A DNA stretch of 64,000 bases from Thermacetogenium phaeum DSM 12270 (GTDB lineage: Bacteria; Bacillota; DSM-12270; Thermacetogeniales; Thermacetogeniaceae), in the NCBI RefSeq assembly GCF_000305935.1, contig NC_018870.1, forward strand, positions 1,071,942 through 1,135,941, written 5' to 3'. Made by a program: the position numbers and the translations under genes. This document shows, one piece after another, positions 6,105 to 15,555 of this stretch; the stretch's first letter is position 1; every line of letters begins with the position of its first letter. Below the pieces are notes generated by a model. That model saw nothing but the letters and a program-made list of their open reading frames with translations. It did no database searches and was not told where the DNA came from.

Positions 6105-6341
6105 CTACGGGTTGTCCTCTGTCTCCCGTTCCAGGGCCTGAAGGCGCTCCACCAGACGGCGGTAGCTTTCCTCGTATTCCTCCTGCTCGATATCGCCTAG
6201 TTCATAGGAGAGTTGCAGTTCCAGCAGTTTGGAGCGGAGGTAATCGGCATCCTCCAGCTCCTGCCGGACGGCGTCGTCGATTTTCTCGGCGATGGCCAGA
6301 AGACCGCGCAGGGGCAGCAGTAGAAGATCGTCGATGATCAT
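6105..6341 (-). CDS. gvpG: Gas vesicle protein GvpG
   Basis: This 78-residue protein matches GvpG, a small accessory protein needed for gas vesicle assembly. It shows the typical hydrophobic start (IIDDLLLLPLRGLLAIAEKI) followed by a charged helical part rich in Glu (QLSYELGDIEQEEYEESY) and ends in an acidic tail. The length is normal for the family (about 80-90). It is the last gene of the leftward operon and lies 24 bases downstream of a gvpF/L gene, the usual neighbour. A GGGAGGGA binding site precedes ATG 6341. Confidence 0.9.
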   Translation of the reverse strand: MIIDDLLLLPLRGLLAIAEKIDDAVRQELEDADYLRSKLLELQLSYELGDIEQEEYEESYRRLVERLQALERETEDNP

Positions 6342-6365: not shown

Positions 6366-7112
6366 TCAATCCGACTCCAGGTCGACGAAGTTATAGGGGG
6401 GCCAGGGGCCGGAGTATTTAAAGTCGAATCGCTCCCGGAACCGTTCGTAGAGGGCATTGACCTGTTCGTCGAAGAGCAGTTCCTTTTCTTTTTCCACCAG
6501 AAAGGCGGCATTCAGGACCATGCGTTCGTTCAGGGGTTTGTTGAGGCGGGTGTTCACGGCCGTTTTTTCGAGGGGTTCCAGGATTTGGGGAGTATAAATA
6601 GAGCGCAGCTCCAGTACGGCTTCTTCCACCCTCTGGCCCAGGAGAATGGCGGAATGGTAGGCAGATTCCGGAGGAAGCGCCTGGATCTCCTCCTTTATCC
6701 GGGCTAGTTCCGGGTACCTGCTTTCCAGTTCCGCCGCCAGGCACTCCTTTTTCCAGATAACCTTCAATCCCAGTTCAATCCTGTTCCGGATCTGCGAGAA
6801 AATTCTCTTGATTTCCTGGTAGCGGGAGGCCAGCATTTGTACCGCCTCCTCTTCCTCCTTGAAAACGGTGCCGAATCTGAGGGGGATGACGTTGAATTGC
6901 TCGCCGAGGCGGGTTACCGTTTGGCTGTGGCTGCGGGCGTTTTCGGGGGTGGGGGTATAGGTGAAATCGGATATGATGCCGGCGATCAGGGTGATATCCT
7001 TGTAGGTGATGGGAATCAGTTCCCGTCCGGAGTCCCCGGTGAGGGAGTCCGGCGGTGTGGACGGCGGTGTCTCCACGATGCCGTAGGCATAGTAGAGTTT
7101 CGGGGACGGCAT
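6366..7112 (-). CDS. gvpF: Gas vesicle protein GvpF/GvpL
   Basis: This 248-residue protein belongs to the GvpL/GvpF family, accessory proteins that bind GvpA and other Gvp proteins during assembly. The N-terminal domain starts with KLYYAYGIV and contains the conserved NVIPLRFGTVF segment (about residues 74-84). The C-terminal domain ends with the family's closing motif FKYSGPWPPYNFVDLE. It shares the GPWPPYxF ending with the second copy at 14087-14923, but the two are otherwise quite different, so they probably have separate F and L roles; which is which cannot be settled from sequence. AGGAGG lies before ATG 7112. Confidence 0.92.
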   Translation of the reverse strand: MPSPKLYYAYGIVETPPSTPPDSLTGDSGRELIPITYKDITLIAGIISDFTYTPTPENARSHSQTVTRLGEQFNVIPLRFGTVFKEEEEAVQMLASRYQEIKRIFSQIRNRIELGLKVIWKKECLAAELESRYPELARIKEEIQALPPESAYHSAILLGQRVEEAVLELRSIYTPQILEPLEKTAVNTRLNKPLNERMVLNAAFLVEKEKELLFDEQVNALYERFRERFDFKYSGPWPPYNFVDLESD

Positions 7113-7190: not shown

Positions 7191-7421
7191 CTAGGCGGCG
7201 GCGATCGCCTGGGGCGGAGCGGCCAGCCTGGTGAGTCCGATCGCCTCTGCGTACTTCAGGTAGGTCTCCACTCCGGCCACGACCACACGGGCCTCCACGG
7301 AGAGCAGCTCGATCCCGACCAGCGCCACCTTGATCCAGGCGTCGATCACCAGCCCTTTGTCCAGGATGCGGTCGATTACCTCGACCAGACTGTTGGCGTC
7401 CGTGCTTTTGGTAACGGCCAT
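7191..7421 (-). CDS. gvpA: Major gas vesicle shell protein GvpA, copy 1
   Basis: This 76-residue protein is the small hydrophobic subunit that builds the gas vesicle wall. It has the near-invariant GvpA pattern: [18 protein letters not shown], then [20 protein letters not shown], then KYAEAIGL and a short Ala/Pro tail. ATG 7421 is chosen because GAGGAGG lies 8 bases upstream; a longer frame adds only MRRIS. It differs from the second copy (15328-15555) at about a dozen positions, mostly conservative (for example WIKVALV versus WVRVTLL). It lies between gvpK and gvpF/L in the leftward operon, with about 120 bases on its upstream side that could hold a promoter. Confidence 0.96.
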
Positions 7422-7541
7422 TGAAATCCTCCTCACCTGAGAATTTGATACCTCAAAACCTTATATCCGCCGATCACCTTACCTCAGAAGCAGATGTCTT
7501 GACCGGTTGCCTGAATATTCAAGTTTATGGCCTGGAGGGGG

Positions 7542-7853
7542 TCAGGTGGCGTCTTCGGCCCAGCGCTCCGGATTCAGCATGCGATCCAGCACGTCGTCCA
7601 CCAGATCGTCCAGGCTCAGGCGGATGTTTCGCACGGTGGTGGTGATGCCGTTCTCTTCTTTTATCCTTTCCAGGGCTTCCCCCAGGTCCATCAGCGCCTC
7701 GCCGAGGCTTATGATCTCCTCCTCCCCCAGGTTGCCGGATTCCATCCGCCTGAGCGCCTGCAGCTCCAGCAGATCTTTTATGATCTCCACCAGGGCCACC
7801 ACCAGTCCCAGCAAACCTTCCTTGAGATTATCCTCGTTGATCTGGATTGGCAA
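7542..7853 (-). CDS. gvpK: Gas vesicle protein GvpK
   Basis: This 103-residue protein matches GvpK, an essential minor gas vesicle protein. The recognisable parts are the hydrophobic helix GLLGLVVALVEIIKDLLELQALRRME, with the LQALRRME signature, followed by the helical LGEALMDLGEALERIKEENG and a C-terminal RLSLDDLVDDVLDRMLNPE. Length is typical. It overlaps the 3' end of the preceding gvpJ/S-like gene by 26 bases, which indicates translational coupling. Confidence 0.93.
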   Translation of the reverse strand: MPIQINEDNLKEGLLGLVVALVEIIKDLLELQALRRMESGNLGEEEIISLGEALMDLGEALERIKEENGITTTVRNIRLSLDDLVDDVLDRMLNPERWAEDAT

Positions 7854-8058
7854 CTTTACTCCCCCTCACCCAGTCCTTCTCCATAAAGCCGTATTCTATC
7901 ATCGTCTCTACGGCAGCAACAACTGCCCGGAGATTTATTCCTATCAACGGGATGTTGGCGACCCCGATGACCAGATCGAGATGGAGAACCAGTCCCTTGT
8001 TGAGCAGTCTGTCCAGAACATCGGCGAGTGCACCCGGTCCTTCCCTCGTTGGGTCCAC
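7828..8058 (-). CDS. GvpA-fold minor gas vesicle protein (GvpJ/GvpS-like)
   Basis: The frame encodes a GvpA-like core: LADVLDRLLNKGLVLHLDLV, then IGVANIPLIGINLRAVVAAV and ETMIEYGFMEKDW. This pattern is found in the minor proteins GvpJ, GvpM and GvpS, which are thought to shape or nucleate the vesicle. I chose GTG 8058 (76 residues), with GGTGG upstream. The frame stays open to ATG 8205, which would add MSWISDKEAYYDTEPL and a further stretch containing NPHERLLTDLNRC; whether that extension is translated is unclear. It is the first gene of the leftward operon and overlaps gvpK. Confidence 0.82.
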   Translation of the reverse strand: MDPTREGPGALADVLDRLLNKGLVLHLDLVIGVANIPLIGINLRAVVAAVETMIEYGFMEKDWVRGSKVANPDQRG

Positions 8059-8253
8059 TGTAAGACCACCACCAGATGATTGCGTTGAACAGCGGTTGAG
8101 GTCGGTCAAGAGCCTCTCATGGGGGTTGAAAGCGGTCTGAACCGGCCAGGCGATCGACAAAGGCTCAGTATCATAATATGCTTCCTTATCGCTTATCCAT
8201 GACATGACCCTGGGCGGGAGATAAAATAATTTGCTCTTGACGGGGCTCGGGTT

Positions 8254-8283
8254 TTGAACATCGCCGGGGGTCCTGCATATATT
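8254..8283 (+). promoter_or_regulatory. Candidate promoter in the divergent gvp intergenic region
   Basis: TTGAAC (8254-8259) and TATATT (8278-8283) are 18 bases apart, about 120 bases before the rightward coiled-coil gene. The leftward operon must also start in this region, but I see no clear minus-strand promoter. Confidence 0.4.
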
Positions 8284-8404
8284 GTATTGTACGGTTCCTT
8301 CTGAAAACGGCACAGGCGGTTCGGAGGTAGAGGATGAAGGCCGTAGGCGACGGAATGGCTCGGAACCGCATGGTACGGTAAATAACTTTGAGGGGTGAGG
8401 ATTG

Positions 8405-8701
8405 ATGAGCAGTCTGGTCGAAAACATGGAAGAGCTGGCCTCCGAAATAATCTCCTCGTTCAGAAACCGGAGAAAGAATCTCCATGAGCTGCAGGAGGAA
8501 GTCAAGAACCTTTTGAGACTGTTCGAAACGGAGAGGCTGGAGATGAGGGCCGGGCTCCAAAAAGAGCTCCACGATTTCATAAACGATCTGGAAGTCAGGG
8601 TGAATAAGCTCCTGGCGGAGTTCGAGGAGGAGAGGTACAGAGCCGAGCAGATATGGATGGAAATGGAGAATAAGATGGAGCATTTGAGAAGGGTGAAATG
8701 A
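8405..8701 (+). CDS. Coiled-coil protein of the gas vesicle cluster
   Basis: This 98-residue protein is almost entirely one predicted charged helix (for example RNRRKNLHELQEEVKNLLRL, then LEVRVNKLLAEFEEERYRAE). Heptad spacing of Leu is seen throughout. I do not recognise a named family. Its place, divergent from the gvpJ/S-K-A-F-G operon and ahead of gvpN, suggests a role in gas vesicle formation, in the way that several small helical proteins (GvpP, GvpQ, GvpT types) accompany Bacillus gas vesicle genes; that is inference. AGGGGTGAGG precedes ATG 8405. Confidence 0.75.
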   Translation: MSSLVENMEELASEIISSFRNRRKNLHELQEEVKNLLRLFETERLEMRAGLQKELHDFINDLEVRVNKLLAEFEEERYRAEQIWMEMENKMEHLRRVK

Positions 8702-8856: not shown

Positions 8857-9831
8857 ATGAACCAGCGGATACTATTGACATCGCAGTTTCCGGATATCTC
8901 CGGAGACTTTGTTATAACGGAGCACCTTCAGAAGTTGATCGACAGGGCGCTGTCGTATTTAAAGGCGGGTTTCCCGGTGCATTTTCAGGGGCCTTCCGGA
9001 ACGGGTAAGACCGCTTTGGCGTTTTATCTGGCCCGCCGCCTGGATCGCCCGGTTATGCCGATCCACGGCGATTCCGAACTGGATTCCGGCGATATCGTGG
9101 GAGGCCCGTCCGGCTACAGCCATACCCTGTATATCGATAATTTCGTTCATTCGGTGCTCAAAAGGAAGGAAGAGTGGGAACGGCAGTGGATAGTAGGGCG
9201 CCTGACCATGGCGTGCAGGGAAGGCATGACCCTGGTTTACGACGAATTCACCCGTTCGCATCCTGAGGTCAACAACGTCCTATTATCGGTGCTGGAGGAG
9301 GGGGTGCTGCAGCTACCCGGGGTTAAAGCCGGTGAAAAGTACGTGCGGGTGCACCCGGGTTTTAGGGCCATTTTTACCAGCAATCCCGAGGAATACGCCG
9401 GTGTTTACAAGAGCCAGGATGCCCTGCGCGACCGGATGATCACCATTGAGCTGGGGCAAATGGATCTGGAGACCGAGATCAGGATCACCGCCCGGAGGTC
9501 AGGTCTCGCCGAGGATCAGGCTACGGTGGTTGTGAATGTGGTCAGGAACTTTGCCGGTGCCTTTCCGGGCTTCACCAGCACTCAGCGCCGGAGCATCATG
9601 ATCGCCAAGCTCGTCAGGGAGCAGGCCCTTTCCTTTGACAGCCCGCTCTTTCAGGAGGTTTGCCTGGACGTCCTGGGTTCCGAAGTGACCCGCAAGAACG
9701 GCAACCCCGTGCCGCGAGAGGTGCTGGAAAAGAAGATGGCGGCGGTGATTGCCGGGGTATTATCACCGGAAGGGAGGCAGGAGGATGAGCCCTCTTACAG
9801 AGGCTTTCGATTCGGCGGCTTTATCAAGTAG
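8857..9831 (+). CDS. gvpN: Gas vesicle protein GvpN, AAA+ ATPase
   Basis: This 324-residue MoxR-type AAA+ ATPase is GvpN, which acts on GvpA assembly and lets vesicles grow to full size. Walker A is GPSGTGKT (residues 45-52), Walker B is LVYDEF (126-131), and a sensor-1-like TSNP stands at 174-177. The family signature GDSELDSGDIVGG, then YIDNFVHSVLKRKE, follows Walker A. The C-terminal helical lid includes TSTQRRSIMIAKLVR. The start is ATG 8857 with GAGGTGAG upstream. The downstream small gene begins inside its last 47 bases. Confidence 0.94.
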   Translation: MNQRILLTSQFPDISGDFVITEHLQKLIDRALSYLKAGFPVHFQGPSGTGKTALAFYLARRLDRPVMPIHGDSELDSGDIVGGPSGYSHTLYIDNFVHSVLKRKEEWERQWIVGRLTMACREGMTLVYDEFTRSHPEVNNVLLSVLEEGVLQLPGVKAGEKYVRVHPGFRAIFTSNPEEYAGVYKSQDALRDRMITIELGQMDLETEIRITARRSGLAEDQATVVVNVVRNFAGAFPGFTSTQRRSIMIAKLVREQALSFDSPLFQEVCLDVLGSEVTRKNGNPVPREVLEKKMAAVIAGVLSPEGRQEDEPSYRGFRFGGFIK

Positions 9832-10027: not shown

Positions 10028-10549
10028 GTGTGGGATAAGCTCTTTAAGGAAGTCGGGGATTTGTTGCGTTTTATCCAACAGGCGGGAGAAGAAGGGGTGG
10101 AAATCAGCCGGAGGGGTACACTCGGACCCTCCTCCGGCAAGGCTCCCGCAGTCTACGACTTTCATCTGAAAATGGGTTCCCTGGCCCCTCCGGGGGCAGG
10201 GGAGAAGGGCCGGGCCGGCGGCCGGGTGTCGTACGAGGGGGATGCCTGCGGCCCCCGGGCGGTGGAACCGGTGGTGGATCTTTTCGAGGATCCGGGTTGG
10301 TTGATCGTCGTCGCCCAGTTGCCGGGGACGGCGGAGCAGGAGCTGAAGCTGGTCGTGGAGGGGAGTGCGCTGGTCATCGGGGGAGGGGAAGGAGAGCGAA
10401 GGTATACCTGTCGGGTTCCCCTGCCCTTTCCTCCCGTCCTTGAAAGGTGCCAGGTATCTTTCACGAACGGGGTGCTGGAGTTGCGCATTCCGACGGAAAA
10501 CGGGGCGGAGCAGGGCTCCGCGAAGGGGGACGACCCTTGGCCGAGCTGA
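10028..10549 (+). CDS. gvpH: Hsp20/alpha-crystallin family protein, GvpH-like
   Basis: This 173-residue protein has an alpha-crystallin domain from about residue 76 (VEPVVDLFEDPGWLIVVAQL) to 160 (VSFTNGVLELRIPTE). The N-terminal half is a helix followed by a Gly/Pro-rich linker. In gas vesicle clusters such Hsp20-like proteins are called GvpH and are thought to act as chaperones for the aggregation-prone shell proteins. GTG 10028 is used, with GGAGGT about ten bases upstream. The end overlaps the start of the Cdc48-like gene by 13 bases. Confidence 0.82.
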   Translation: MWDKLFKEVGDLLRFIQQAGEEGVEISRRGTLGPSSGKAPAVYDFHLKMGSLAPPGAGEKGRAGGRVSYEGDACGPRAVEPVVDLFEDPGWLIVVAQLPGTAEQELKLVVEGSALVIGGGEGERRYTCRVPLPFPPVLERCQVSFTNGVLELRIPTENGAEQGSAKGDDPWPS

Positions 10550-12660
10550 TCTTGACGGCGGCGGAGGCGATGGCGAAGGATGTCGGCCGGGGGAACGTCC
10601 GCATCGACCCGGCTGATATGGCCGCGGCCGGCCTGGTGGCCGGGGATGTGGTGGAGATCACCTGCAAGCGAAGCACCGTGGCCCGGGTGCTGCCGGCCTA
10701 CCCAGAATTCCGCGGCCGGGGGCTGATGCAGATCGACGGCATAACCCGGCAGAATGCGGGAATCGGCCTGGGAGAAAAGGGGCGGATTCGCCGGGTTGAG
10801 GTGCGGCCCGCGTTGCAGCTGGTTTTGCTGGCCAGGCAGGGCCCCGGCCCCTTTGAAAAGGAGGGACGGCAGTTGAGCCGGCTCTTGCTGGGGGTTCCCG
10901 TTGTCAAGGGGGACGGCGTCAGGATCGAGTACTTCGGCTCGGCCCTGGATTTTACGGTGCTCGAGACGGTGCCGGCGGGACCCGTGCTCATCGAGGCCGC
11001 CACGGGGGTTAAGGTGAAGCTGGAAAAAAGGGACGGCGAAGGACAGGCTTCCGTCAGCTACGAGGATATCGGCGGTTTGGGCAAAGAGATCCGCAAGATC
11101 CGGGAGATGCTGGAGCTACCTTTAAAATATCCGGAGGTCTTCGCCCACCTGGGGATCGACCCCCCCAGGGGTGTCCTGCTTTATGGGCCTCCCGGTACCG
11201 GCAAGACCCTGATCGCCCGGGCGGTGGCCCATGAAACCAACGCCTGTTTTCTCCACGTGAACGGGCCCGAGATCATTCACAAGTACTATGGGGAAAGCGA
11301 GGCCAGGCTCCGGGAGATATTCGAGAAGGCGCGCGCCAACGCTCCCAGTATCATTTTTCTCGACGAGATCGATGCGGTGGCCCCCAGGCGGGAAGAGGTG
11401 CACGGGGAGGTGGAAAAGAGGGTCGTGGCCCAGCTCCTGGCGTTGATGGACGGCCTGGAGTCCCGGGGACAGGTGGTGGTGATCGGGGCCACCAACATCC
11501 CCAACGCCCTGGATCCGGCCCTACGCAGGCCCGGCCGCTTCGACCGGGAGATCGCCATCGGAGTTCCGGATCAGAACGGCCGGCTGGAGATACTGCAGAT
11601 CCATACCCGGGGGATGCCGCTGGCGAAGGACGTCCTGCTGGAGGAGATTGCCGGGCTCACCCACGGCTTTGTGGGGGCGGATCTGCAGGCCCTGTGCAAG
11701 GAGGCGGCCATGCTGGCCCTCCGCCAGGCCCTGCCGCAGCTGGAGGGGGGCAGCCCCGGAGGGACCTCGCTGGAGATCGTGGACCGGTTGCAGGTGTGCC
11801 GGAGGCATTTCCTCCAGGCCCTGAACGAGGTGGAGCCCTCCGCCCTCCGCGAGGTTTATGTGGAGATCCCCCATGTCGAGTGGGAGGAGGTCGGGGGGCT
11901 GGAGGAGATCAAACGGGAACTGAGGGAGGCGGTGGAATGGCCGCTCTTTTACCCCGAGCTCTTGAGAGAGGCCGGGGTGGTGCCGGCCAAAGGCATACTC
12001 CTGGTCGGCCCGCCGGGGACGGGGAAAACCCTGCTGGCGCGGGCCGTGGCCTCGGCCAGCAAGGCCAATTTCATCTCGGTCAAGGGCCCCGAACTCTTTT
12101 CCAAATGGGTGGGGGAATCGGAAAGGGCGGTGCGTCAGATCTTCCGGAAGGCGCGCCAGGCCACCCCCTGTATCGTTTTCTTCGATGAGATCGACGCCCT
12201 GGTGAGCTCCCGCGGCTCCGACGGCGATCCGACCTCGGACAAGGTGCTGGGCCAGCTGCTGACGGAGATCGACGGCATCGAAGGGCTGCGGGGGATAATC
12301 GTCCTGGCGGCAACCAACCGGCCGGACCGCATCGATCCGGCGCTGCTGAGGCCCGGCAGGTTCGATCTGGTTCTGACCCTGCCTCTGCCGGACCTGCGGT
12401 CCCGGGAGCAGATCCTGAGGATTCATACCGCAGGCAAGCCTCTGGCCGGGGATGTCGACCTGGCCGAACTGGCCGGGGAAACCGAAGGGTTTTCAGGGGC
12501 CGACCTCCGGTACGTCTGCTGGCGGGCCTCCTGGCTGGCGATCAGGAGGTTTCTCGCAGCGAATTACCGGGAGGGAGGGGCAAAGCGGGTTCCCCTCCAG
12601 GTCGAGAAGGAGGACTTCCAGCATGCCCTCGCCCTTTTAAAGGCCGGAGGCCGGGTATAA
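10537..12660 (+). CDS. Cdc48/p97-like double AAA+ ATPase in the gas vesicle cluster
   Basis: This 707-residue protein has the full Cdc48/VAT layout. An N-terminal double-psi-barrel type substrate domain (about 1-160, with [20 protein letters not shown]) is followed by two AAA+ rings. D1 has GPPGTGKT (217-224) and IIFLDEID (272-279). D2 has GPPGTGKT (491-498) and IVFFDEID (546-553). Each ring has its arginine-finger motif (RRPGRF and LRPGRF). Enzymes of this kind unfold or pull apart proteins in an ATP-driven way. I chose TTG 10537, which overlaps the gvpH stop, because the longer frame would begin inside gvpH. Location makes a role in gas vesicle assembly or turnover likely; the substrate is unknown. 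Confidence 0.9.
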
Positions 12661-12727: not shown

Positions 12728-13090
12728 CTAATCGATCTCTTTATCCTGTTCTGCAATCCAGAGCACGATGCGGCGGAACCTGTTGAATTCTACGAATATC
12801 TCCGGAGAGAGCAGGAGGATGTTTCCGTAGAACTTGATCCACTCGGGAGTCACCTTCATGAAGGCGAATCCTCCGTCTTGTAATCTGACGATCCAGAAGA
12901 TCTTGTGCCTGGTGGCGACGAAGAAGCTGTCGGTCACATACCCGCTGCCGGAGGCTCCCTCTTTCCCGGGCTCGAAGTCGAAGGCAAACGCCTTCGGCGG
13001 CCTCTTGGTCCTTTCCAGGGCTTTCAAAACTTCCGCCAGATCGGCGAGTTCCTCCGATTCGATGTTTTCGTAATCGATGACGGCTTCCAT
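12728..13090 (-). CDS. Hypothetical protein in the gas vesicle cluster
   Basis: This 120-residue acidic protein has no domain I recognise. It begins MEAVIDYENIESEELADLAE and has a helical start, then a beta-rich middle (SGYVTDSFFVATRHKIFWIV, then RLQDGGFAFMKVTPEWIKFY). It has no membrane segment or signal peptide. The run AAAGGGGGT lies 7 bases before ATG 13090; ATG 13096 is two codons upstream. It is transcribed alone, leftward, between the gvpN operon and the zinc-ribbon gvpJ gene. Position is the only hint of function. Confidence 0.7.
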   Translation of the reverse strand: MEAVIDYENIESEELADLAEVLKALERTKRPPKAFAFDFEPGKEGASGSGYVTDSFFVATRHKIFWIVRLQDGGFAFMKVTPEWIKFYGNILLLSPEIFVEFNRFRRIVLWIAEQDKEID

Positions 13091-13253
13091 ATTCATACCC
13101 CCTTTGGTGGTTTTACTACCATTATATTCCATGATCGTGTAAAAGGTGCTGAATTATACCCCGCAGGCGTGACGTTTTTCCGTACCAGTCATCGGCCCGG
13201 CCGTTGCAGGCATATAATTAGTAGGGTCAACCACCGGGAAGGGGGAGGAAAAG

Positions 13254-13628
13254 ATGGCTGCGCGGCTGGAACCGACCAGGGAGCGGGGATCAACCCTGGC
13301 CGATGTGGTGGAGCTGATTCTGGATAAGGGGCTTGTGATCAATGCCGATATCACGGTATCGGTGGCCGGCGTGGAGCTCCTGGGTATAAAAATAAAGGCG
13401 GCTCTGGCCTCCTTTGAGACTGCCGCCCGATTCGGCCTGGAGTTTCCTTCGGGGGTGAACCGGGAGACTGCGGCCTGGCGCGAGGCCGAAACGGTCAAGG
13501 AAATGTGTCCCCAGTGCGGTAAACGGGTGAATGTCTATGAGCTGCTGAACGACCAGTGCCCGTGGTGCGGCTGGGAGAGCGCCCGGGCCCGACAGAACAA
13601 ACTGCAGGCGATGCCGCTTCCCAGATAA
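13254..13628 (+). CDS. gvpJ: GvpJ-like protein fused to a zinc ribbon
   Basis: Residues 14-62 of this 124-residue protein are a GvpA/GvpJ-type core: [20 protein letters not shown], then TVSVAGVELLGIKIKAALAS. The rest (about 82-110) carries two Cys pairs, CPQC (85-88) and CPWC (102-105), separated by KRVNVYELLND, which is the layout of a metal-binding zinc ribbon. GvpJ proteins I know carry charged helical tails at this place, so the fusion is unusual. It may give a docking site for another protein. GGGAGG precedes ATG 13254. It is transcribed toward the gvpL gene, 460 bases away. Confidence 0.85.
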   Translation: MAARLEPTRERGSTLADVVELILDKGLVINADITVSVAGVELLGIKIKAALASFETAARFGLEFPSGVNRETAAWREAETVKEMCPQCGKRVNVYELLNDQCPWCGWESARARQNKLQAMPLPR

Positions 13629-14086: not shown

Positions 14087-14923
14087 ATGAGTGAGGATCT
14101 GGCCGTGGCCGGCGGCAATAATCAAGGAGTTGCCACGGTCCCGGGCGGACGTTATGTCTATTGCGTGGCTCCGGTCGTTGATTTGGAGGGCAAAGGGTTG
14201 CAGGGGATTGACGGGAATCGCGTCTATCAGATAGCCTTTCGGGATATCGGTGCCCTGGTGCACGATTGCCCCGATGTCCCTTATCAGGGGGGGGATGAGC
14301 AGGTAAGGGCATGGCTTCTGGCACATCACCGGGTGATCGAGGCGGTCTGGGATGCGGCGGGGACGGTGCTTCCCATGACCTTTGACATGATCATCAAGGG
14401 GGATGCGGGGTGTACTGCCGGCGACCGGGTGGTGCGCTGGCTCGAGGACAATTACGAGGCCTTTAAGAACAGGCTGGAGTTCTTTCGCCGTAAGGCGGAA
14501 CTGAGAATCCGGGTTATCTGGGAGCGGGGACCGTTATTGAGGATAGCGGCCTGTGAGGATCCGGAAGTGAAACGGCTGCAGGTGGAAATGGAAGGCAAGC
14601 CCCAGGGTATGGCCTTTTTTTATAAACGCAAGATCGAGAAACGGATTAGAGAGGTGGTCGACGGGCTTGCCGACGGCATCTACCGGGATTGTCTGAACAG
14701 GCTCCGGCCTTTGGTGGCAGCATGTCGGGAGGAGAAACCCAGGCGCCTGGAGGGGAAGGAAATGCTGTTAAACCTCTCCGTTCTCGCGGAGGAGGCGAGG
14801 ATCGAAGATATCGGCAACCTCTTGGGGGAAATCCAGGAGCGGGAGGGATTTGAGGTGATCTTTACGGGGCCCTGGCCTCCTTACAGTTTTGCGGCGGAGG
14901 AGGTCGGGGCGGAGATTAATTAG
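14087..14923 (+). CDS. gvpL: Gas vesicle protein GvpL/GvpF, second copy
   Basis: This 278-residue GvpL/GvpF-family protein begins with GGRYVYCVAPVV, typical of the N-terminal domain, and has the conserved VLPMTFDMIIKG segment in place of the VIPLRFGTVF of the other copy. A middle FFRRKAELRIRVIWERG segment follows, and the protein closes with FEVIFTGPWPPYSF. The N-terminus carries about 20 extra polar residues. Together with 6366-7112 it gives the usual pair of F/L accessory proteins. AGGGGGGAAAA precedes ATG 14087. It is followed directly by a small helical gene. Confidence 0.92.
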   Translation: MSEDLAVAGGNNQGVATVPGGRYVYCVAPVVDLEGKGLQGIDGNRVYQIAFRDIGALVHDCPDVPYQGGDEQVRAWLLAHHRVIEAVWDAAGTVLPMTFDMIIKGDAGCTAGDRVVRWLEDNYEAFKNRLEFFRRKAELRIRVIWERGPLLRIAACEDPEVKRLQVEMEGKPQGMAFFYKRKIEKRIREVVDGLADGIYRDCLNRLRPLVAACREEKPRRLEGKEMLLNLSVLAEEARIEDIGNLLGEIQEREGFEVIFTGPWPPYSFAAEEVGAEIN

Positions 14924-14938
14924 AAAGGGGTGAGAGAG

Positions 14939-15184
14939 GTGAAGGAGTGTACCGATGTAAAGAAGGAGGCAAAGGGGGCGATTATACGCCTGGCCAGGCA
15001 CCTGGAGGCCACGGGCCACGCCTGCGAAGCCCGGGATCTGTATCTGAAATTGATGAATGAGTATCCGGAGAGCGAGGAGGCCTTCGAGGCCAGGAAGTCG
15101 CTCTTGTCGCAGGCGCGGGAATACGAGCGGCGGGGGATGGTTCACAACGCCCTGGATATCTACCGGATACTGTTGCTGGGATAA
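14939..15184 (+). CDS. Small TPR-like helical protein
   Basis: This 81-residue protein is built of short amphipathic helices with tetratricopeptide-like spacing: GHACEARDLYLKLMNEYPES, then EAFEARKSLLSQAREYERRG and MVHNALDIYRILLLG. Ala/Tyr/Pro placement fits about two TPR units, suggesting protein binding. GTG 14939 is used because AAAGGGG lies 8 bases upstream; GTG 14930 is also in frame. It lies 15 bases after gvpL and is probably in the same transcript. No named Gvp family is recognised. Confidence 0.72.
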   Translation: MKECTDVKKEAKGAIIRLARHLEATGHACEARDLYLKLMNEYPESEEAFEARKSLLSQAREYERRGMVHNALDIYRILLLG

Positions 15185-15327: not shown

Positions 15328-15555
15328 TTAGGCGGCTATAACGGGCGGAGGCGAGGCGAGTTTGGTCAGGCCGATGGCTTCCGCATACTTTAAGTAGGTT
15401 TCGACTCCCGCCACAACCACTCTGGCTTCCACTGACAGCAGCTCAATACCCAGTAGCGTAACCCTTACCCAGGCATCGATAACCAGACCTTTATCGAGGA
15501 TGCGGTCTATGACTTCTACCAGGCTGTTGGCGTCGGTGCTTTTTTGGATTGCCAT
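15328..15555 (-). CDS. gvpA: Major gas vesicle shell protein GvpA, copy 2
   Basis: This 75-residue GvpA shares the core [16 protein letters not shown] and [20 protein letters not shown] with copy 1 and has the same kind of Ala/Pro tail. Changes lie mainly at the N-terminus (MAIQKSTD versus MAVTKSTD), the segment after the first helix ([10 protein letters not shown]) and the tail. It stands alone: its own terminator follows, and it is on the opposite strand from gvpL. A single-gene transcript would allow the shell protein to be made in large amounts. GAGGAGG lies about 11 bases before ATG 15555, longer than usual. Confidence 0.96.

What the first reader, a model, noticed from the sequence alone, without database searches (positions are those of the whole stretch)
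13254..13628. GvpJ-like protein carrying a C-terminal zinc ribbon
The GvpA-type core ends near residue 62 and two CxxC pairs (85-88, 102-105) follow in one intact frame. GvpJ proteins are minor shell or tip proteins, usually with charged tails. A metal ribbon at the tip could dock another protein or sense metal or redox state.
Basis: partly seen in the sequence, partly recalled or inferred. Interest (0 to 1): 0.6.

Follow-up and report, generated by a model that had tools for sequence, protein, structure and literature searches.

The report
Gas-vesicle protein with zinc ribbon tail
This gene encodes a gas-vesicle assembly protein (GvpJ) whose tail is a small, probably zinc-binding domain; the tail is conserved in many bacteria and archaea, although the laboratory models of gas-vesicle assembly lack it and I found no paper describing it.

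Summary
The ORF at 13254-13628 (+) is real. It has a GvpA-type core (Pfam 2.9e-15) followed by C85/C88 and C102/C105, in a complete gvp gene set.

The ribbon is not a local oddity. Eighty loci from many phyla encode 60-78% identical full-length relatives, and all 81 sequences keep the four Cys plus W75, P86, K90, L97, W104 and G106. AlphaFold gives residues 81-110 a pLDDT of about 93-95.

Synteny (F-G-J-K-L-M) and a single clade of ribbonless haloarchaeal proteins suggest this is the ortholog of Halobacterium GvpJ, whose ribbon was replaced by another tail. Bacillus/Streptomyces-type GvpJ is a separate clade with a coiled-coil-like tail. In the survey loci read, both CxxC pairs are present or neither; one MAG copy is cut by a stop.

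The same ribbon recurs in gvp clusters on GvpM-type paralogs with PH domains and on tandem-ribbon proteins encoded beside gvpJ.

Best explanation: a structural Zn(Cys)4 docking module joining shell-like GvpJ to the GvpK/GvpL-centred assembly complex. The ribbon fold is strongly predicted; bound zinc and the partner are inferred. Tip location and metal or redox sensing are unsupported. Novelty: new variant of a known kind.

The parts
13254..13628 (+). gvpJ with C-terminal zinc ribbon (Jz), 124 aa
13241..13249 (+). Shine-Dalgarno-like gggggagga upstream of the ATG
   Evidence: read directly
13293..13409 (+). GvpA-type core as matched by Pfam (residues 14-52); conserved core runs to about residue 68
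13494..13583 (+). zinc ribbon, residues 81-110: CPxC - 13 residues - CPWC, invariant C85 C88 C102 C105
   Evidence: (pLDDT about 93-95)
13581..13610 (+). predicted basic helix after the ribbon (residues 110-119)
14087..14923 (+). GvpL (NCBIfam GvpL 2.8e-51, 174.7 bits, under the cut-off of 200), next gene downstream of gvpJ
14930..15184 (+). 84-aa TPR-like protein following gvpL
   Evidence: weak YbgF match 9e-5
15328..15555 (-). GvpA, second copy
   Evidence: 1.4e-35, above cut-off
7191..7436 (-). GvpA, first copy
7542..7853 (-). GvpK
   Evidence: 2.8e-19
7828..8580 (-). GvpM-type paralog without ribbon; GvpA core at residues 184-222 of this ORF, so the true start is probably further in
6366..7112 (-). 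GvpF/L-type protein
6105..6341 (-). GvpG
8857..9831 (+). GvpN-type AAA ATPase
   Evidence: cluster position
10028..10549 (+). Hsp20-like protein (GvpH-type)
10447..12660 (+). CDC48-type double AAA ATPase of the gvp cluster (start codon uncertain)

Best explanation
The ORF is the GvpJ of this gvp cluster, from a widespread subfamily in which the hydrophobic GvpA-like core ends in a Cys4 zinc ribbon. The core would insert in, or pack against, the growing GvpA shell. The ribbon, folded around one structural zinc, would stay in the cytosol and act as a rigid docking knob that recruits the accessory assembly complex, most likely GvpL, with GvpK/GvpM and possibly GvpG or the Hsp20-like GvpH. In Halobacterium the same position is held by a different hydrophilic tail, and in Bacillus/Streptomyces-type GvpJ by a coiled-coil-like tail. 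Shown here: intact gene, conserved invariant ribbon, synteny, co-occurrence, predicted fold. Inferred: zinc as the metal, cytosolic exposure, partner identity, docking itself.
For: All 81 relatives from many bacterial and archaeal phyla keep C85/C88/C102/C105, W75, P86, K90, L97, W104 and G106. Ribbon pLDDT is about 93-95, with NZF-like local matches. In 37 loci with about 8 kb on both sides, gvpK and gvpL are present in 37/37, GvpA in only 14/37 and GvpN in 22/37. GvpG is directly upstream in 47 of 83 loci. The F-G-Jz-K-L-M order matches H. salinarum F-G-H-I-J-K-L-M. Jz-M-K-L runs occur without GvpA nearby. Tail swapping: in the survey loci, J tails carry either both CxxC pairs or none, with acidic or coiled-coil-like tails in the ribbonless forms. 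In H. salinarum the C-terminal half J47-114 binds GvpG, GvpH and GvpL, and loss of the last five residues abolishes vesicles (PMC8716928). C-terminal GFP and apoferritin on B. megaterium GvpJ are tolerated, so that terminus is accessible (PMC11223475).
Against: No metal or interaction was measured. Halobacterium's tail is not homologous to the ribbon, so transferring its partners is an inference from position. In this window gvpK and gvpM lie in a separate minus-strand group. The Foldseek E-values for the ribbon are not significant. The core itself is poorly modelled (pLDDT about 50), as expected for a shell protein predicted alone.
Confidence: 0.6

Rival explanations
1. The ribbon is a homotypic or heterotypic oligomerisation element: ribbons of GvpJ, ribbon-bearing GvpM paralogs and tandem-ribbon proteins pair with each other to build the nucleus.
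For: The same ribbon model finds 27 core-linker-ribbon paralog ORFs and 21 tandem-ribbon ORFs in gvp loci; several tandem-ribbon ORFs start within about 60 bases of the gvpJ stop.
Against: The window's genome has only this one such ribbon: a whole-genome search finds itself (E 2e-26) and then 0.036, so a second ribbon protein is not required. Homotypic pairing is not excluded.
Confidence: 0.17
2. The ribbon senses metal or redox state and gates gas-vesicle assembly.
For: Cys4 sites can be redox- or metal-labile (general knowledge).
Against: It is equally invariant in methanogens and sulfate reducers (anaerobes) and in actinobacteria such as Actinomadura and Sinomonas (aerobes) (lifestyles from general knowledge); the same position carries tails without CxxC elsewhere.
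Confidence: 0.07
3. The ribbon plus basic helix binds nucleic acid, for example to couple assembly to translation.
For: Weak matches to ribosomal and RNA-polymerase ribbons; the post-ribbon helix is often basic.
Against: All such matches are far below cut-offs and are common for any Cys4 ribbon; the constant companions are assembly proteins, not RNA factors.
Confidence: 0.08
4. The CxxC pairs are coincidental or decaying and have no function.
For: None found, beyond one metagenome copy (L179) with a stop inside the ribbon.
Against: Invariance over many phyla and two domains; purifying selection.
Confidence: 0.01

Closest known systems
Halobacterium salinarum GvpJ
   Same: GvpA-type core about 60% identical, same place in the gene order F-G-(H-I)-J-K-L-M
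   Different: Its C-terminal half is hydrophilic and the protein has no cysteine (PMC8716928); other haloarchaeal relatives have long, mostly acidic tails
Bacillus/Streptomyces-type GvpJ (DWW type)
   Same: GvpA-type core with an extra C-terminal tail
   Different: Separate clade (100/100), core ends in D/NWW, coiled-coil-like tail, no CxxC
Natronococcus occultus WP_015323277 and Natrinema zhouii WP_226778695, annotated only as 'gas vesicle protein'
   Same: 61-64% identical including the full ribbon
   Different: Lie in short Jz-K-L-M runs without gvpA in the stretch read
NZF (RanBP2-type) zinc fingers, e.g. Nup153 ZnF3 3gj4 and Trabid NZF1 5af6
   Same: Local fold, rmsd 1.3-1.5 A over 29 columns, four-Cys protein-binding knuckles
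   Different: Not significant by Foldseek E-value; in GvpJ the second CxxC is followed by a helix; no sign of homology

Membership tests
GvpA/GvpJ gas vesicle family (PF00741) | Gas_vesicle domain above the Pfam gathering score | tested here: met
   56.5 bits against 25
GvpJ (haloarchaeal type) | Best match to the GvpJ model rather than GvpA or GvpM | tested here: met
   GvpJ 99.9 bits, GvpM 54.1, GvpA 37-49
GvpJ (haloarchaeal type) | Score above NCBIfam NF046090 cut-off of 125 | tested here: not met
   99.9 bits; the model is 73 positions long and made for halophiles. I therefore call it a GvpJ variant, not a member of that curated family
GvpJ (haloarchaeal type) | Conserved place between G and K-L-M in gvp clusters | tested here: inconclusive
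   Met in relatives; in the window itself K, M and G lie in a minus-strand group and only L follows gvpJ
GvpJ (haloarchaeal type) | Essential for vesicle formation | not testable with these tools
   needs genetics
Cys4 zinc ribbon | Two invariant CxxC knuckles in a compact predicted fold | tested here: met
Cys4 zinc ribbon | Match to a curated ribbon family above its cut-off | tested here: not met
   best 17.7 bits against 27.6
Cys4 zinc ribbon | Bound zinc, four Cys within bonding distance | not testable with these tools
   no coordinates returned; NZF-like local fold is indirect support

The most novel reading that the evidence does not exclude
Many gvp clusters carry an undescribed adaptor layer built on one zinc-ribbon module: ribbon GvpJ, GvpM-type shell paralogs with PH domains and a ribbon, and tandem-ribbon linkers. 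These would tether the nascent vesicle to the assembly complex and, through the PH domains, to a membrane or another protein scaffold.
Probability: 0.3. Interest if true: 0.72.

Novelty: new variant of a known kind. Interest (0 to 1): 0.5.

Why it matters
What GvpJ does in gas-vesicle assembly is open, and the models in use carry other tails: hydrophilic in Halobacterium (PMC8716928), coiled-coil-like in Bacillus-type relatives, repeats in Anabaena (PMC10903477). A compact, invariant ribbon gives a folded handle: four Cys-to-Ser changes should show whether the GvpJ tail recruits the accessory complex. It also suggests that one adaptor module is reused on other shell paralogs, and could be a handle for functionalising gas vesicles used as acoustic reporters.

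Tried and rejected
Literature: no paper in the held library joins 'GvpJ' or 'gas vesicle' with 'zinc ribbon'. 'Gas vesicle' with 'zinc finger' and GvpA returned four haloarchaeal papers whose titles and abstracts are on other subjects; they were not read. Subscription journals are mostly not held. Rejected: chance or decay (conservation), a lineage-specific oddity (many phyla), a requirement for a second ribbon partner (none in this genome). The promoter scan around the gene gave one site, on the other strand, below shuffled expectation. The tree of 70 core columns does not resolve the backbone, so loss of the ribbon in haloarchaea is suggested, not proven. The 80 loci are biased towards ribbon carriers because ribbon peptides were among the search patterns; some searches were used for frequency instead.

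Full report
Observation. The ORF at 13254-13628 (+) is intact, 124 aa, preceded by a Shine-Dalgarno-like gggggagga. Pfam Gas_vesicle covers residues 14-52 (E 2.9e-15), and the best NCBIfam model is haloarchaeal GvpJ (99.9 bits, below its cut-off of 125). Its only cysteines are C85, C88, C102 and C105. The window holds a full gvp set: two gvpA, gvpF, gvpG, gvpK, a gvpM-type gene, gvpN, an Hsp20-like gene, a CDC48-type ATPase and gvpL.

Conservation. A scan of one genome per species found 185 confirmed relatives, of which the best 80 were kept. They are 60-78% identical over nearly the whole length, in records labelled Chloroflexi/Anaerolineae, Atribacteria, Actinomycetota, Desulfobacteraceae, Bacillota, Methanophagales, Bathyarchaeia, Thaumarchaeota and others. 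All 81 aligned sequences have the four Cys; W75, P86, K90, L97, W104 and G106 are also invariant. The scan used ribbon peptides among its patterns, so it overstates frequency.

Surveys less dependent on the ribbon. Whole genomes were searched with the full protein, where a core-only match also counts. By my count of the match tables, ribbon GvpJ is present in 3 of the 300 genomes searched in the window's phylum, 17 of 345 in the phylum of Methanothrix, 7 of 297 in that of Actinomadura, 4 of 247 in that of an uncultured Desulfobacteraceae and 4 of 251 in that of an Anaerolineales MAG. The same surveys show ribbonless GvpJ: about 28 genomes in the Methanothrix phylum, whose 13 tails that I read are long, mostly acidic and without CxxC, and a DWW type in the bacterial phyla. 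In the loci, tails had both CxxC pairs or none; elsewhere L179 has an in-frame stop within the ribbon and L158 ends right after the core. Of 20 genomes of the window's family, one other has gvpJ and it has the ribbon, with purifying selection on both parts.

Relation to known GvpJ. Gene order in relatives is typically F-G-Jz-K-L-M, as in H. salinarum F-G-H-I-J-K-L-M. In a tree of the cores, the ribbonless haloarchaeal proteins form one clade (100/100) placed among ribbon GvpJ, and the DWW type another (100/100); the backbone is unresolved. Natronococcus occultus and Natrinema zhouii, both haloarchaea, carry a ribbon GvpJ. The simplest reading is ribbon replacement in most haloarchaea.

Structure. 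AlphaFold with 77 aligned sequences gives residues 81-110 a pLDDT of about 93-95 and the pattern strand-knuckle-strand-helix-knuckle-helix; the core is modelled poorly. Foldseek finds NZF-type fingers at 1.3-1.5 A over 29 columns, with E-values that are not significant. Cys-Cys distances could not be measured.

The ribbon elsewhere in gvp clusters. A ribbon-only HMM matched 27 ORFs with a GvpA core, a long linker and a C-terminal ribbon, and 21 ORFs with two ribbons and no core (a few are the same place held twice as loci from two searches). The long ones match PH/GRAM families; a model shows two strand-rich domains and a ribbon of the same pattern, and Foldseek finds tandem PH proteins such as BBS5 (5e-9). 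Bathyarchaeia have a second small ribbon GvpJ. The window's genome has none of these: its ribbon finds itself and then only E 0.036.

Mechanism. In 37 loci with about 8 kb on both sides, gvpK and gvpL are always present but GvpA in 14, and some loci hold only Jz-M-K-L. In H. [quoted passage not shown] In B. megaterium deleting GvpJ, GvpK or GvpS abolishes the GvpA2-GvpL interaction (PMC11445434), and tagged GvpJ is tightly bound near the polarity-inversion point (PMC11223475). I therefore favour a zinc-folded docking knob for the GvpK/GvpL-centred complex. Zinc, exposure and partner are inferred. Sensing is disfavoured because the ribbon is equally invariant in anaerobes and aerobes.

Novelty. 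The fold is ordinary and the family known; the conserved combination, its reach and the shared ribbon on PH-bearing paralogs were not found described in the held library, which lacks most subscription papers.

Noticed in passing
L018:10460-11554, L010:10979-12085, L011:7740-8828 and about 24 more: GvpM-type paralogs of about 250-420 aa: GvpA core, PH/GRAM-like domain(s), C-terminal ribbon like that of GvpJ.
   Followed up: partly
L008:2780-3214, L005:2027-2398, L019:6038-6433, L031:8409-8834, L065:4557-5012: Tandem double-ribbon proteins encoded directly downstream of ribbon gvpJ.
   Followed up: partly
L207, L208, L209, L028, L211: Short Jz-(M)-K-L runs without gvpA nearby, in haloarchaeal plasmids, a Streptomyces plasmid, Actinomadura and the window's family relative; in the last two genomes a GvpA-type gene lies on another contig.
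   Followed up: partly
L071:1373-1702, L042:7652-7978, L026:7643-7981: Second small ribbon-bearing GvpJ-like gene just upstream of the main one in Bathyarchaeia and a Nanoarchaeota-labelled MAG.
   Followed up: no
L124 (haloarchaeal-type GvpJ): The tail of this otherwise ribbonless GvpJ holds a different Cys/His stretch (CKALTASGERCSRPAKDDGFCHQH), perhaps another small metal site.
   Followed up: no
12728-13132 (-): 134-aa ORF with no Pfam or NCBIfam match, divergent to gvpJ; the loci held show it only in the window and in L081, which overlaps the window.
   Followed up: no
8402-8701 (+): 99-aa ORF, probably coiled coil, upstream of gvpN; relatives in about ten of the loci held.
   Followed up: no
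L179: Ribbon gvpJ of a metagenome genome with an in-frame TAG just after the third Cys; sequencing error or pseudogene.
   Followed up: no
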